The notes under the pieces are model-generated. The model made no database searches and was not told where the DNA came from. It saw only the letters and a list, made by a program, of their open reading frames with translations. Shown here piece by piece: positions 237 through 6,472 of a stretch of DNA of 64,000 bases (within the stretch, counting starts at the first letter, position 1; each line of letters begins with the position of its first letter). This DNA is from Planctomycetota bacterium (GTDB taxonomy: Bacteria; Planctomycetota; Brocadiia; Brocadiales; Brocadiaceae). Made by a program: the position numbers and the translations under genes. The stretch covers positions 1-64,000 of the forward strand of contig VGXX01000001.1 in the NCBI GenBank assembly GCA_016873155.1, written 5' to 3'.

Positions 237-288
237 CCTTAATCCACCCATTTGTGTGATGGATTAGGACCGACAGGTCGAATCCACC
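237..288. repeat. REP-like palindromic repeat
   Basis: This stretch is nearly identical to 4402-4455. Both contain AATCCACC, a TGATGGATTA arm and the GACCGACAGGTC core that folds back on itself. Such repeats typically accompany RAYT transposases, and a RAYT stub follows the 4.4 kb copy. The rest of the 223-569 gap shows nothing I can name. Confidence 0.6.
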
Positions 289-569
289 ACATTTGAAAGC
301 ATTGTTAGTGAATTTGGCAAACGTGACTTTTATTGTACTCAAAGATAGGAACTCCGTGGAGCGACGGTCTTGAAGGTTGATTAAGGACGCACTTTAAATG
401 GCTAATTTTATTGCACACGGTCGTTTCTTCTGTTACTATTCTCCTTGTTAATGACCTGTCAAATAAACCTTTTGCGCATCAGGCTATAGCAGCCGATTCT
501 TTTTGATAAATTGAAATGGATGCAATAATTTTAATGGCAATGTTTAGATAAAAGCAGGAGGTGTTTTTT

Positions 570-806
570 ATGTTAGGACTTGACCGTATTACTTTTGACC
601 CCAATGTAATGGGAGGACGAGCATGCATTCGGGGAATGCGCGTCACTGTGTCTTTGATTGTCAATTTGGTAGCAAACGGTAAGAGTATGGAAGAAATTAT
701 AAATGCGTATCCATACCTAGAGTTGGACGATATCCGTCAGGCATTACAATACGCTGCATGGCTTGCAGAAGAATCTGTCTACCCCTTAGAAACTGCATCC
801 ACATGA
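570..806 (+). CDS. DUF433 family antitoxin
   Basis: This 78-residue protein has the DUF433 pattern: an ITFDPNVMGGRACIRGMRV start, the helix NGKSMEEII, and an ALQYAAWLAEE end. The family forms a small helix-turn-helix protein that is usually the antitoxin of a DUF5615 (PIN-like) toxin. I take the ATG at 570 because AGGAGG (556-561) lies 8 nt upstream; an in-frame GTG at 561 has no such site. The stop overlaps the start of the downstream toxin remnant (ATGA). A second, intact pair lies at 46151-46764. Because the partner here is broken, this antitoxin is probably an orphan. Confidence 0.85.
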   Translation: MLGLDRITFDPNVMGGRACIRGMRVTVSLIVNLVANGKSMEEIINAYPYLELDDIRQALQYAAWLAEESVYPLETAST

Positions 807-990
807 AATTTCTAGCAGACATGGGAATTTCACCAAAGACAGTGACATTTTTGCAAGATTTAGAACAGGACGTAATACATTTGACGAAGTAATCTCCAAA
901 CATCAAGACGCACTCCAACAAGGTGTCATAATCAGTGTTACTGAGGGACAGATACGTGTACGCCTCCTTCCTATTGAAACAAGTAAATGA
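803..990 (+). pseudogene. Broken DUF5615 toxin
   Basis: The frame opens in an ATGA overlap with the antitoxin and reads MKFLADMGISPKTVTFLQ, as DUF5615 toxins do, but stops at 890-892 after 29 residues. From about 901 a different frame encodes HQDALQQGVIISV and RVRLLPIETSK up to a TGA at 988-990, which matches the C-terminal strand of the same family. The middle, with the catalytic acidic residues, is missing. Compared with the 121-residue intact copy at 46151-46516, roughly half the gene has been lost by internal deletion plus frameshift. It cannot make an active PIN-like nuclease. Confidence 0.7.
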
Positions 991-1304: not shown

Positions 1305-4286
1305 ATGAGAGACAAAAAAGAAATCAATGTTTTTATCGCTTCTCCCGGAGATGTGACAAAAGAACGGAATATTGTTCGTACAGTCTGTGAAGATTTGAAT
1401 AAAAGTGCACTCCTAAAACCATACGGCATTTTATTTCAAGCTACAGGAGGGGAAGATGTGTTCCCATCTCCCGGCCGTCCACAGGAGATTATAAACTGGC
1501 TCGTAAAGGAATGTGATATCTTTGTCTGCATATTTCATAAAAGAATTGGCTCTCCTACGGGAAGAGAAGAGTCAGGCACGTTAGAAGAATTTCTCCTTGC
1601 CTATGATTCATGGAAGTCATTGAAGAAGCCTCATATTATGTTTTATTTCAAAGAAGTTAAAATTCGCTCTAAGAAGGAACGAGAAGACCCTCAACTGATA
1701 AAAGTTCTGGATTTAAAAGACAAGATTGAAGAAGAAAAATTGCTATTATTTGGGGAATTCTCCACAACAGATGAATTTAATGAGAAAATAAGAGACCACC
1801 TGGAAGGCTGGACTGCGGAAAATGCAACGAGGTGGGAGAAAATAGGCGGTAAAATTCAAGAAACCCTTGAGTTAGATAGGTGTTTCAAAAATTATCTGAA
1901 ATCTGCTGTAAAAGAACATCGCCATCTTCCCACGCAGGGATTTGAAACCAACTTAAGGATTCCTATCGAACTCGAGCGGGTATATATATGCATGAAGGCT
2001 TACATACATACACGAGATTATGATTTTACTCTCGAAGGCAGAAAGAAGATGGAAGAGAAAATACGTGAAGACGGGCTATCTTCCATCGATATAAAGGCAG
2101 CATTTAAAGCGGCTACCAGACATAACGTAAAGAATATGGTAATTCTTGGTGACCCGGGTTCGGGCAAAACAACCCTCTTAAAACATATCTTTGTTTCATT
2201 CGCGGACGGTAAGGGGGAGGATGTCCTCGGTCTTGAAGATACGCTCATCCCATTCTTTGCCCCTTTAAGAGAGATAAAAGACCCCAATAAGGAGGATTTT
2301 ATCCATTTTATGAAAAGGGTATGCAAATTCGAAGAATATGAAATTTCGGATAATGCCTTCAGAAGCCTTCTCAGTGAAGGACGGGGGATAGTCCTTCTTG
2401 ACGGCCTTGATGAAGTTGCGAATGAGGACATACGAATAAAGACCTGCAAATGGATAGATACGGCAAGGCAGAGATTTGCTCTTTCGAGGTTTATTATCAC
2501 ATCCAGATATGCTGGTTACCTTGGCAGGAGCAGACTTGTGGGAGGCGTCCTTGAGCTTTCCATACAGCATTTTGCTCCGGATGAGGTAAAAGAATTCCTT
2601 ATTAAGTGGTTTGAGTCCGTGGAAGTCGCCCTTCATCCTGAAGATAATGAGGCAAAGAGGAGGAAGAAAGGCAGGGATGCCGCCCTTGAGTTGGTGGACA
2701 GAATACAGAAATCCCAACATATACAGAAGCTGGCGATAAATCCACTCCTGTTACAGATAATTGCCCTTGTGCACAGGGATCGAGGGACATTGCCCCAGCG
2801 AAGAGTGGAACTCTATGAAGAGTGTACAAACGTCCTCCTTGAAAGGTGGGATATGGCAAAGGGGCTTGATATACTGGTAACGGCCCGTGAGGCGCGGCAG
2901 ATATTGCAACCCCTTGCTTTATGGCTGCATGAACTGGATGAGAGGAGATCAGCGCCGCTGGAAGCGATAGAAGAAGTGATAAAGGATCCTCTTGAGGAAG
3001 TGGGAAAAGCGTATATTGATCCTAAGAAACTCTTACTCAATATCAGGGACAGAAGCGGCATATTCATGGGATACAGTGAAACGGAATACGGGTTTACCCA
3101 TCTCAGTTTTCAGGAATATCTTTCTGCTGAACAGGTCAGGAATAAGAGATTGATTGGATTGCTTCTTTCAAAATACGGAAACAGGTGGTGGAAGGAGGTG
3201 ATACTTCTTTGTCTGGGCCTTAATAATCCCTCCATAATCGCGGAATTTATGGAACAACTCATCCCCACGGAAGGTTTCAAAAGCGAGATAAGCATAGTAA
3301 TAGACGCGCTTCGTGATTCCATTGTGAAAACAGCAACCCCTTTTATTCATGCGATTGGCAACACAACACTGTCGCCCGAAGCACGGTACAATGCAGTATG
3401 GGCGTTAAAAGAAATAGGCGGTGACAAGGTCATAGAAGCGTTGAAAGATGCTGTGAATAACAAAGATCAGAAACTTGCCCTGATGGCTTTTGAGGCCCTT
3501 GAATCAATGGGTAAGAGTGAAGGTTTGAAAAAACCGGTTACTGAAGAAATTGCAGAGAGATTTATAAACCCTATAGATAAGTCAGAGATGGTGCTTATCC
3601 CTGCCGGGACATTCCTTTACGGCAGTCGTGAAGACGATCCGGTTGCACATAGTAATGAAAAACCACAACGTGTTATTGATCTCCCGCCATTTTATATAGA
3701 TATTTTTCCCGTTACCAATAGACAATTTTGTAAATTCTTACGTGCCAGAAAGCCAGATAAGGATACTTTAAATCATTGGATTTATTTAGAAGGTCGTTTT
3801 AGAAGAGAAAGATGTAGGATTAAAGAAGACGGTGAGAACTATGTCGTTGAAAAAGGTTATGAAAAACACCCTGTTATTTATGTGAGCTGGTTTGGTGCGA
3901 ATGCATATGCGAAATGGGCTGGGAAGAGACTTCCGATAGAGGAAGAATGGGAAAAGGCAGCTAGGGGACGCAAGGGCTGGGTATATCCCTGGGGAGATAA
4001 CTTTAACCCTTCGTTATGTAACTCTGATGAAAGTGGTATTGGGGGAACGACAGAGGTTACTAAATTCCCGAAGGGAAAAAGTTATTATGGGTGTTATGAT
4101 ATGGCAGGGAACGTATTGGAGTGGACGGATAGTTGGTATAACGAAGAAAAAAATTTTCGTGTTTTTCGTGGGGGGTCTTGGAACGATGAAGGTGACGACT
4201 GTCGGTGTGCCAATCGCTTTGGGCTCAGCCCGAACGTCAGGGGTAACGGTGTTGGATTTCGTTGCGCCAGGACTCTTAAACTTTGA
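1305..4286 (+). CDS. DUF4062-NACHT-HEAT-FGE protein (NLR-like, possible DGR target)
   Basis: This is a 993-residue multidomain protein. Residues 4-95 are a DUF4062 domain (INVFIASPGDVTKERN). Residues about 270-450 are a NACHT-type STAND NTPase, with Walker A GDPGSGKTTLL near 282 and Walker B GIVLLDGLDEV near 362. Residues about 680-755 look like HEAT repeats. From about 758 comes an FGE-sulfatase (SUMF1/C-type-lectin-fold) domain (MVLIPAGTFLYGS) ending in FRGGSWN and VGFRCAR. The order effector, NTPase, repeats, sensor is that of STAND defence proteins such as Avs and bacterial NLRs. A role in phage or stress sensing is therefore an inference. The FGE tail has the layout of DGR variable proteins. 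It lies among relic toxin-antitoxin and transposase pieces. Catalytic FGE activity is unlikely, because in such proteins this fold serves binding. Confidence 0.85.
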   Translation: MRDKKEINVFIASPGDVTKERNIVRTVCEDLNKSALLKPYGILFQATGGEDVFPSPGRPQEIINWLVKECDIFVCIFHKRIGSPTGREESGTLEEFLLAYDSWKSLKKPHIMFYFKEVKIRSKKEREDPQLIKVLDLKDKIEEEKLLLFGEFSTTDEFNEKIRDHLEGWTAENATRWEKIGGKIQETLELDRCFKNYLKSAVKEHRHLPTQGFETNLRIPIELERVYICMKAYIHTRDYDFTLEGRKKMEEKIREDGLSSIDIKAAFKAATRHNVKNMVILGDPGSGKTTLLKHIFVSFADGKGEDVLGLEDTLIPFFAPLREIKDPNKEDFIHFMKRVCKFEEYEISDNAFRSLLSEGRGIVLLDGLDEVANEDIRIKTCKWIDTARQRFALSRFIITSRYAGYLGRSRLVGGVLELSIQHFAPDEVKEFLIKWFESVEVALHPEDNEAKRRKKGRDAALELVDRIQKSQHIQKLAINPLLLQIIALVHRDRGTLPQRRVELYEECTNVLLERWDMAKGLDILVTAREARQILQPLALWLHELDERRSAPLEAIEEVIKDPLEEVGKAYIDPKKLLLNIRDRSGIFMGYSETEYGFTHLSFQEYLSAEQVRNKRLIGLLLSKYGNRWWKEVILLCLGLNNPSIIAEFMEQLIPTEGFKSEISIVIDALRDSIVKTATPFIHAIGNTTLSPEARYNAVWALKEIGGDKVIEALKDAVNNKDQKLALMAFEALESMGKSEGLKKPVTEEIAERFINPIDKSEMVLIPAGTFLYGSREDDPVAHSNEKPQRVIDLPPFYIDIFPVTNRQFCKFLRARKPDKDTLNHWIYLEGRFRRERCRIKEDGENYVVEKGYEKHPVIYVSWFGANAYAKWAGKRLPIEEEWEKAARGRKGWVYPWGDNFNPSLCNSDESGIGGTTEVTKFPKGKSYYGCYDMAGNVLEWTDSWYNEEKNFRVFRGGSWNDEGDDCRCANRFGLSPNVRGNGVGFRCARTLKL
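4166..4286 (+). other. Candidate DGR variable region (VR) at the gene's 3' end
   Basis: Inside the FGE domain, invariant DGR-like positions (FRGGSWN, CRCANR, VGFRCAR) alternate with positions whose codons fit adenine-mutagenised AAC or AAT: GAT, GGT, GAC, GAC, TTT, CTC, AGC, GTC, GGT. A DGR template would carry AAC or AAT at those sites. No template repeat or reverse transcriptase is visible in this window, so this could also be a fossil VR or an ordinary FGE domain. Confidence 0.45.
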
Positions 4287-4331
4287 TGCTTTTACCCTTT
4301 TCCCCTCTAAAAAGAGGGGTGAGTAAGGTAG

Positions 4332-4455
4332 GGTGGATTAAGCGTGAGCGAATCCACCATGTATAAAAATATTGTGGTGGATTCGGCGCAAAAACCAGCG
4401 CCTTAATCCACCCTACTTTTGTGTGATGGATTAAGACCGACAGGTCGAATCCACC
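4332..4455. repeat. Cluster of three REP hairpins
   Basis: Three consecutive inverted repeats share GGTGGATT / AATCCACC arms at 4332-4358, 4376-4412 and 4425-4455, with different loops. The third is a near copy of 237-288. They sit directly before the start of a RAYT transposase stub, the usual position of REP/BIME repeats. A shorter C-rich hairpin (CCCCTCT / AGAGGGG, about 4302-4319) lies just upstream and may end transcription of the NACHT gene. Confidence 0.7.
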
Positions 4456-5062: not shown

Positions 5063-6472
5063 ATGGAAATGATGAATAAAGAGAAAACTATAGTTTCGAT
5101 TGTCACTCCTTTAGGTGAGGGTGGGATTGGCAAGATTATCGTCTCCGGCCCGGACGCCTTGAGTATTATCAATAAGGTGTTTCAGGGGAAGGGTATTGCC
5201 GATCTTCGTGAGGCCGCAAGTCAAAAACTCTACTATGGGCATATTTACGATAAAGGAGAGAGGATCGATGAGGTTATTCTCAATGTTGTAAGACAAAAGG
5301 ATAGTTTTACCGGTAAAGATGTTGTAGAAATAAACTGCCACGGCGGTATCCGCGTGGTAATGAGGATTTATGAACTCTTGCAGTCGTCAGGCGTAGAGGG
5401 TGTCGACTGGGATTCATTGCTCCAACAGTCCCTTGAAAATGACAAGACAGATTTTATCCAGAAGGAGGCGTCTCAGGAGTTGGTTCAGGTACGCACAAAA
5501 CTCGGCGTAAAGGTGTTGCTGGATCAATATAGAGGGGCATTATCGGGAGCATTGCAACAAGGGCTGAAAATCGTCGAAGGAATCAGGCAGTCTTTGCTTG
5601 CAAAGAATAACAAAAATACCCCCCCTCTATCCCCCCCTTCGCAAGGGGGTGGGGGTGGGGGTGGGGGTGAAACCATAAATTTTCACTCTGTTTCTCCTTT
5701 GATAGACCATATTGAAAATTTATTGAAAACGACTCCTTTCGGTATGGCATTGACCTCGCCGCAAGTTCTGGTAATTCTTGGCAAACCTAATGTAGGTAAA
5801 TCAACACTCATCAACGCCATTCTTGGTGAAGAACGCATGCTTGTACATCATGAGCCGGGGACCACGCGGGATTATGTGAGCGAGTTTATTTCCATTAAGG
5901 GTATCCCCTTTGAACTGGTGGATACTGCCGGTGTGCGGGAAACAAGCGATAGGCTCGAATCCATGAGCATTGAGATGACACAGGAACAACTCCGGCGTGC
6001 TGACAAGGTTATTACCGTATTTGATAACTCACGAAAATTTGATCAGGAAGATGAGGGAATTTTGAGCGCCTTAAATTCCTGGCTGAAGACAAAGAATTCG
6101 GGCGATTTGCAAAAAAAGACAAATACGGATGCGATTATCGCCGTGGTTAACAAATGCGACCTGCCTGCAAAATTAGACAAGCAAAGGATTGCGGCCACCT
6201 TTCAGCAACCTGTATGCTGTATATCTGCCCTGAACAAGGAAGGGTTTGAGGATTTAAACAGGCGGCTTGTACGGGAATTTGATACGGCGTACAAACCCAT
6301 GAGACCCGTAGTGTTTACTAAAAGGCAGTACCTTTTATTAGCAATGGCTGACGTTGTGGTTAAACAAGAGGGAGACTGTTTGTCTGCAAATAATGTGTCC
6401 GAGAGGACGTTTCAGACACTCGATAAATTGAAGGACATTTTCAGAGCATGTTTGGAGGGGTCTTCGAGTTAA
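5063..6472 (+). CDS. mnmE: MnmE-like tRNA modification GTPase (divergent)
   Basis: This 469-residue protein resembles MnmE, which with MnmG adds the carboxymethylaminomethyl group to wobble U34 of tRNAs. It has the N-terminal tetrahydrofolate-binding domain (TIVSIVTPLGEGGIGKI, EINCHGG) and a G domain with G1 GKPNVGKST, G3 DTAG and G4 NKCD. Two things are odd. The usual GEFTxRAFLNGK stretch after the first domain is not recognisable. The C-terminus reads IFRACLEGSSS rather than the FCIGK-type end that supplies the catalytic cysteine. In addition, a C-rich repeat (5618-5670) is translated inside the helical domain as a proline and glycine tract. Starts at 5063, 5069 and 5072 are all possible; the last gives MNKEKTIVS, most like homologues. 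No clear Shine-Dalgarno site is seen. Confidence 0.8.
   Translation: MEMMNKEKTIVSIVTPLGEGGIGKIIVSGPDALSIINKVFQGKGIADLREAASQKLYYGHIYDKGERIDEVILNVVRQKDSFTGKDVVEINCHGGIRVVMRIYELLQSSGVEGVDWDSLLQQSLENDKTDFIQKEASQELVQVRTKLGVKVLLDQYRGALSGALQQGLKIVEGIRQSLLAKNNKNTPPLSPPSQGGGGGGGGETINFHSVSPLIDHIENLLKTTPFGMALTSPQVLVILGKPNVGKSTLINAILGEERMLVHHEPGTTRDYVSEFISIKGIPFELVDTAGVRETSDRLESMSIEMTQEQLRRADKVITVFDNSRKFDQEDEGILSALNSWLKTKNSGDLQKKTNTDAIIAVVNKCDLPAKLDKQRIAATFQQPVCCISALNKEGFEDLNRRLVREFDTAYKPMRPVVFTKRQYLLLAMADVVVKQEGDCLSANNVSERTFQTLDKLKDIFRACLEGSSS
5618..5670. repeat. C-rich palindromic repeat inside mnmE
   Basis: Here CCCCCC(T)CTATCCCCCC and GCAAGGGGG arms are followed by repeated GGGGGT units. The stretch is translated in frame as PPLSPPSQ plus a run of eight glycines. 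It belongs to the same family as the intergenic copies at 6471 and 11278. It falls between the helical domain and the G domain, where an insertion could be tolerated. Confidence 0.75.

What the first reader, a model, noticed from the sequence alone, without database searches (positions are those of the whole stretch)
1305..4286. NLR-like DUF4062-NACHT protein ending in a DGR-type variable lectin domain
The protein joins an effector-like DUF4062, a NACHT NTPase, HEAT-like repeats and an FGE/C-type-lectin sensor. Its last 35 codons show the DGR pattern: fixed FRGGSWN, CRCANR and VGFRCAR with intervening codons that are all one or two changes from AAC or AAT. A STAND immune-type sensor whose ligand-binding tip can be hypermutated would be a bacterial adaptive-recognition system. 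No reverse transcriptase or template repeat lies in the window, so it could act in trans, be lost, or never have existed.
Basis: partly seen in the sequence, partly recalled or inferred. Interest (0 to 1): 0.8.

Follow-up and report, generated by a model that had tools for sequence, protein, structure and literature searches.

The report
Orphan hypermutation target in bacterial NLR-like sensor
This anammox-lineage gene encodes an immune-receptor-like protein whose tip is a real target of the retroelements bacteria use to scramble proteins, but the scrambling machinery is missing from the assembled genome, so the sensor is probably frozen or, less likely, edited from elsewhere.

Summary
Observation confirmed: window 1305-4286 is one intact 993-aa ORF, DUF4062-NACHT-HEAT-FGE/C-type lectin. 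Its last ~120 bases are a genuine DGR-type variable repeat (VR). No reverse transcriptase, template repeat (TR), TR-RNA element or above-cut-off Avd was found in its own genome, but relatives settle the origin. The 72% ortholog in Brocadiaceae B4_bin.26 matches that genome's TR with every VR-core mismatch at a template adenine, apart from the usual IMH*/IMH base. A 62% homolog in another MAG sits in a complete cassette Avd-RT-TR-TIR-NACHT-FGE. The window's VR end is nucleotide-identical over 31 and 33 nt to VR ends of two targets with dissimilar bodies. Its variable codons are all NNY and, between orthologs, change more at positions 1/2 than 3, the reverse of the gene body. Most likely this is an NLR-like sensor, with an N-terminus from a family reported as TIR-like NADases (PMC13174449), once diversified by a DGR and now orphaned; trans diversification by unassembled machinery is not excluded. 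DGR-diversified NACHT-lectins are known (Dore 2024), so this is a new variant.

The parts
1305..4286 (+). 993-aa NLR-like protein: DUF4062 - NACHT - helical/HEAT-like - FGE/C-type lectin with C-terminal DGR variable repeat
   Evidence: full-length orthologs 68-72% identical in three other genomes
1329..1598 (+). DUF4062 (res. 9-98), candidate TIR-like NADase effector; invariant Glu94 (codon 1584-1586) is the candidate catalytic residue
   Evidence: Pfam PF13271 E 4.9e-9; alignment A5; family reported as NADase in PMC13174449. Fold check inconclusive
2136..2615 (+). NACHT NTPase with Walker A GDPGSGKTT (2148-2174) and Walker B LLDGLDE (2394-2414)
3372..3518 (+). HEAT-like repeats between NACHT and sensor
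   Evidence: PF13646 E 2.1e-5, just below the Pfam cut-off; alpha-Rep structures also match here
3582..4271 (+). FGE-sulfatase / C-type-lectin domain; aligned with FGE enzymes, the first active-site Cys is Asp961, so probably a binding scaffold rather than an enzyme
   Evidence: PF03781 E 5.8e-57; FGE/SUMF and TvpA 2y3c among sequence matches
4158..4277 (+). DGR-type variable repeat (VR)
   Evidence: compared with TRs of relatives; codon-position inversion
4254..4284 (+). IMH-like block GGATTTCGTTGCGCCAGGACTCTTAAACTTT, identical (31 nt) in a 26%-identical target of G025 and (33 nt, through the stop codon) in a KAP-FGE gene of G029
4289..4301 (+). Non-coding CTTTTACCCTTTT downstream of the stop, present after the VRs of G029 and G025 and, with small changes, after several others
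4302..4319 (+). Perfect 7-bp/4-nt inverted repeat CCCCTCT-AAAA-AGAGGGG, where BPP-1-type targets have a hairpin; neither sequence nor loop is conserved among the orthologs
   Evidence: compare PMC3240598

Best explanation
The gene encodes an NLR-like conflict protein. The C-terminal FGE/C-type-lectin domain presents a variable face that binds a foreign or altered molecule; binding lets the NACHT NTPase oligomerise; this switches on the N-terminal DUF4062 domain, a member of a family reported to be TIR-like NADases, which would deplete NAD+ and stop the infected cell. The tip was written by a DGR: a reverse transcriptase with Avd copies a template repeat, mutating template adenines, and the cDNA replaces the VR at the gene's 3' end, anchored by the IMH block at 4254-4284. 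Shown here: architecture, VR and IMH identity, purifying selection on the gene body, DGR origin through orthologs, absence of RT/TR/TR-RNA from this assembly. Inferred: ligand binding, oligomerisation, NADase output. Current state, most likely: an orphan (frozen, once-diversified) target whose machinery is no longer in the genome.
For: Ortholog G008:C65 (72%) vs the TR on G008:C153: 18 of 26 template adenines at codon positions 1/2 differ, 0 of 38 non-adenines, 0 of 31 non-adenine third positions; the only other core change is the IMH*/IMH T-to-G. L139: Avd (bAvd E 1.2e-24)-RT-TR in front of a TIR-NACHT-FGE protein 62% identical from residue 194. Window vs relatives' TRs: 13-18 of 26-30 adenine sites differ vs 2-5 of 34-38 others, p 2e-4 to 3e-6. 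AAY columns: 2-4 of 9 residues shared with orthologs vs 0.69-0.72 in the rest of the FGE domain; window pairs differ at 30/54 first/second and 9/27 third positions, against 0.17-0.19 and 0.41-0.51 in the body. Ordinary FGE family tails: 0.85 identity with the normal third-position excess. IMH: 7 of 8 codons identical in window, G008 and G054 vs 34% of invariant residues in the body; 31- and 33-nt exact matches to the VR ends of proteins with little body similarity. Absence: PF00078, VR and TR DNA, TR pattern, DGR-RT profile at E<=10, TR-RNA model, Avd only 26.6 bits vs cut-off 40; the family, pattern, profile and RNA searches ring in relatives. Orthologs G003 and G054 likewise lack RT and TR.
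Against: The genome is a 362-contig draft, 96% complete, and the gene lies 1.3 kb from a contig end, so RT and TR could be unassembled or unbinned. No TR of its own exists to compare with, so adenine-specific change is shown against relatives' TRs only; those comparisons are not independent, and ordinary FGE tails give p down to 5e-4. Effector and sensor functions are untested; structure models had low confidence (pLDDT 59 and 63) and the DUF4062 fold search did not single out TIR domains.
Confidence: 0.68

Rival explanations
1. Live remote target: the VR is still diversified in trans by an RT/TR that the assembly misses, or that sits on a plasmid or phage.
For: IMH and 3' element intact; all AAY columns still NNY; in G008 the ortholog is on another contig than RT and TR yet matches that TR; trans targets are documented in Thiohalocapsa (PMC10907252). 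Draft genome with a nearby contig end.
Against: No RT, TR, TR-RNA or above-cut-off Avd in a 96% complete genome; same absence of RT and TR in G003 (84% complete) and G054 (95%). No viral contig carries the IMH pattern.
Confidence: 0.25
2. Never a DGR target: an ordinary FGE domain whose loop positions happen to look AAY-derived.
For: FGE framework residues coincide with the non-adenine sites of TRs; ordinary tails give best-case p of 5e-4 to 5e-2. No machinery in the genome.
Against: The 72% ortholog matches its genome's TR at every non-adenine in the core except the IMH base; 31/33-nt exact IMH matches to genes with dissimilar bodies; inverted codon-position pattern; 62% homolog in a cis cassette.
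Confidence: 0.04
3. The protein is not an immune sensor but a regulatory or signalling STAND protein with a diversified lectin head.
For: No functional test exists; DGR lectins in cyanobacteria are proposed to tune regulatory pathways (PMC7517822).
Against: Interchangeable N-termini (DUF4062, TIR, metallophosphatase) on one chassis; PADLOC candidate defence family PDC-S60 matches both the DUF4062 and the metallophosphatase forms; reported antiphage NADase role of DUF4062.
Confidence: 0.2

Closest known systems
DGR-diversified STAND/NACHT-CLec antigen-sensor candidates (Dore et al. 2024, PMC10907252, RT clade 5D)
   Same: NACHT or nSTAND NTPase with a C-terminal FGE/CLec domain ending in a VR; KAP and TIR versions; trans targets
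   Different: No DUF4062 in that paper's main text; here no RT/TR in the genome; anammox lineage
Remote and remnant DGR variable proteins of cyanobacteria, e.g. Anabaena all3226 (PMC7517822)
   Same: VR-bearing CLec gene away from, or without, an RT; [quoted passage not shown]
   Different: Different phylum; for all3226 the text says no proximal RT, while here none is found in the whole assembly
DUF4062 TIR-like NADases: Swarozyc and human TEP1 (PMC13174449)
   Same: DUF4062 domain with a conserved Glu; DUF4062 next to NACHT as in TEP1, NWD1/2, NPHP3
   Different: KpSwz has an AUX domain that binds phage portal; here NACHT-HEAT-lectin with a DGR VR; NADase activity not tested
PADLOC candidate defence family PDC-S60
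   Same: Residues 6-299 match one PDC-S60 model, the metallophosphatase homolog another
   Different: Match covers only the N-terminal part; the family itself is a candidate, not a proven system
Treponema denticola TvpA (2y3c)
   Same: FGE-type CLec scaffold of a DGR variable protein, detected by sequence
   Different: The resemblance is limited to the lectin domain; no NTPase or effector matched

Membership tests
Diversity-generating retroelement target (variable protein) | VR differing from a TR at template adenines | tested here: inconclusive
   No own TR. Against relatives' TRs adenine-biased, p 2e-4 to 3e-6; ortholog with its own genome's TR fits fully
Diversity-generating retroelement target (variable protein) | C-terminal C-type-lectin scaffold with the VR at the gene's 3' end | tested here: met
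Diversity-generating retroelement target (variable protein) | IMH at the VR end shared with known targets | tested here: met
   31- and 33-nt identity; TR/VR base difference AGT/AGG in relatives
Diversity-generating retroelement target (variable protein) | Hairpin/cruciform just after the VR | tested here: inconclusive
   7-bp stem present, but loop AAAA is not the GRNA reported in PMC3240598 and is not conserved
Complete DGR in this genome | Reverse transcriptase | tested here: not met
   same searches ring in relatives
Complete DGR in this genome | Template repeat and its structured RNA | tested here: not met
Complete DGR in this genome | Accessory protein Avd | tested here: not met
   only a 26.6-bit match, cut-off 40
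NLR-like STAND protein | N-terminal effector, central NACHT, C-terminal sensor | tested here: met
   (by sequence only)
NLR-like STAND protein | Ligand-triggered antiphage activity | not testable with these tools
   needs experiment
DUF4062 TIR-like NADase | DUF4062 domain with conserved Glu | tested here: met
   PF13271; Glu94 invariant in A5; equivalence to KpSwz E97 inferred, not aligned
DUF4062 TIR-like NADase | TIR-like fold | tested here: inconclusive
   alpha/beta topology predicted but low confidence; Foldseek unspecific
DUF4062 TIR-like NADase | NAD+ hydrolysis | not testable with these tools
   needs experiment
Formylglycine-generating enzyme | Two active-site cysteines | tested here: not met
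   GGSWNDEGDDC aligned with GGSFLCHESYC: first Cys is Asp; identity of the active-site Cys pair from established knowledge of FGE

The most novel reading that the evidence does not exclude
Brocadiales carry a family of NLR-like NADase receptors that are diversified by retroelements, exchange effector domains on a constant NACHT-HEAT-lectin chassis, and are then fixed by shedding the retroelement: a bacterial analogue of receptor maturation followed by germline fixation.
Probability: 0.3. Interest if true: 0.8.

Novelty: new variant of a known kind. Interest (0 to 1): 0.55.

Why it matters
Whether DGR-diversified NACHT-lectins really work as adaptive immune receptors is open. This family offers a testable set: one sensor chassis with three different effectors, complete cassettes in some genomes and orphaned, perhaps fixed tips in others, in organisms that grow as dense aggregates (established knowledge of anammox bacteria). 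Orphan tips are the variants selection kept, so their ligands may be the easiest to find.

Tried and rejected
AlphaFold models of the whole protein and of DUF4062 were too uncertain to map the VR or prove a TIR fold. The adenine-mismatch test against foreign TRs looked decisive until ordinary FGE tails were run as controls and scored down to p = 5e-4 in the best case; it is kept as support only. IMH pattern in viral contigs: no hit. The downstream hairpin is not conserved among orthologs, so it is not used as evidence. Three other calls failed on stop codons in the chosen stretch.

Full report
What is there. It is 68-72% identical over its full length to proteins in three other genomes of the same order, with the NACHT motifs invariant and low first/second-position change (0.17-0.19 against 0.41-0.51 at third positions), so it is a maintained gene. 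Named relatives are Candidatus Brocadiaceae MAGs and a Planctomycetota MAG; the window's own record is unnamed, and its placement in Brocadiaceae is inferred from kinship with these.

Is the tail a DGR variable repeat? The framework residues alone do not prove it, because they belong to the FGE fold; ordinary FGE tails from the same genomes, given the most favourable gap and template, reach p = 5e-4 in the same test. Four lines do. First, the 72% ortholog in G008 (contig 65) compared with the TR on G008 contig 153: 18 of 26 adenines at codon positions 1/2 differ, none of 38 non-adenines and none of 31 non-adenine third positions; the only other difference in the repeat core is the T-to-G of IMH*/IMH. 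Second, a MAG labelled Pseudomonadota (L139, JAUWIR010000216.1) has the order lectin-VR end, bAvd, RT, TR, then a TIR-NACHT-HEAT-FGE protein 62% identical to the window protein from residue 194. Third, the longest exact nucleotide match between the window gene and the Metallophos-NACHT-FGE target of G025 (26% identical protein) is 31 nt exactly at the VR end, and with the KAP-FGE gene of G029 33 nt including the stop codon; a 13-nt non-coding motif follows in both. Fourth, at nine columns read from the related TRs, ortholog pairs share 1-4 residues of 9 and differ more at codon positions 1/2 than 3, the reverse of the gene body and of ordinary FGE tails.

The machinery. The window genome (3.46 Mb, 362 contigs, 96% complete) has no RVT_1, no match to an alignment of ten DGR RTs even at E 10, no TR by DNA similarity or by pattern, no TR-downstream RNA by covariance model and no Avd above the curated cut-off. 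The family, pattern, profile and RNA searches ring in relatives: RTs above 430 bits in G050, G008, G023, G041, G036 (two), G032, G039 (two) and G007. G003 and G054, which also carry the full-length ortholog, lack RT and TR too, and G003 shows decay of the IMH (AGG to AAG, CTT to CTA). In G008 the ortholog is on a different contig than RT and TR. So the DUF4062 form tends to stand apart from its retroelement. Losses through incomplete assemblies cannot be ruled out, and the gene is 1.3 kb from a contig end.

Modularity. On one NACHT-HEAT-lectin chassis (55-72% identical from about residue 180 to the end) the N-terminus is DUF4062 (window, G008, G003, G054), a calcineurin-like phosphoesterase by Pfam (L138, G039) and by sequence resemblance also in L140, or TIR (L139). 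The lectin domain alone (66%) also sits on a KAP NTPase in G029. Two PADLOC models of candidate family PDC-S60 match the DUF4062 and phosphoesterase forms respectively.

How it probably works. Lectin tip binds a ligand; NACHT oligomerises; DUF4062, reported as a TIR-like NADase family active in antiphage defence (PMC13174449), depletes NAD+. The residue equivalent to KpSwz Glu97 is probably Glu94, invariant even in a 32%-identical relative, but this was not aligned to KpSwz and the fold prediction was too weak to help. Every functional step is inference.

Known or new. DGR-diversified NACHT-lectins as putative antigen sensors are published (PMC10907252), as are remote and remnant variable proteins (PMC7517822). 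I found no paper in the held library linking DGRs with Brocadia, and DUF4062 does not occur in the main text of the DGR-NACHT paper; the library is incomplete. New here: the DUF4062 arm, effector exchange on the chassis, and orphan VRs, with the IMH conserved in the window and G054 and partly decayed in G003. Hence a new variant of a known kind.

Noticed in passing
window 251-288 and 4418-4455: A 38-nt direct repeat (97% identical) flanks the DUF433 gene plus the NLR-like gene; these are the only two copies of its 33-nt core in the genome with up to 3 mismatches. It might mark an acquired cassette, or be two relatives of a REP-like repeat.
   Followed up: partly
L059, L080, L052, L139, L063, L078, downstream of the TR (model R1): About 150 nt downstream of the TR look like a conserved, structured RNA in six DGRs; a covariance model finds it in G025, G050, G008, G023, G007 (training sequences) and also in G044.
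   Followed up: partly
L080 (G025:C1:243165) and G044:C78:5417-5551: G025 (99% complete) keeps a TR, its RNA and a target but no DGR RT; G044 has the TR RNA but no RT. Decay of DGRs may be common in this order.
   Followed up: partly
L133 (G002:C227) 329-1787: Same-genus genome with a TR-like asparagine-rich stretch of another type (WSSTTNVNNTSNAWNVNFNNG...) and a DGR-like RT split by a frameshift.
   Followed up: no
L059 10291-10409 and L139 2167-5247: The VRs of the G008 phosphoesterase-NACHT target and the L139 TIR-NACHT target carry small length changes that shift the frame; could be assembly of mixed variants or real.
   Followed up: no
window 561-990: DUF433 antitoxin-like gene followed by a frame-broken partner resembling a DUF5615-type toxin (the DUF5615 label is from memory).
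   Followed up: partly
window 5612-5668: G/C-run insertion inside the mnmE-like coding sequence reading in frame as PPLSPPSQGGGGGGGG (mnmE named from the sequence by eye).
   Followed up: no
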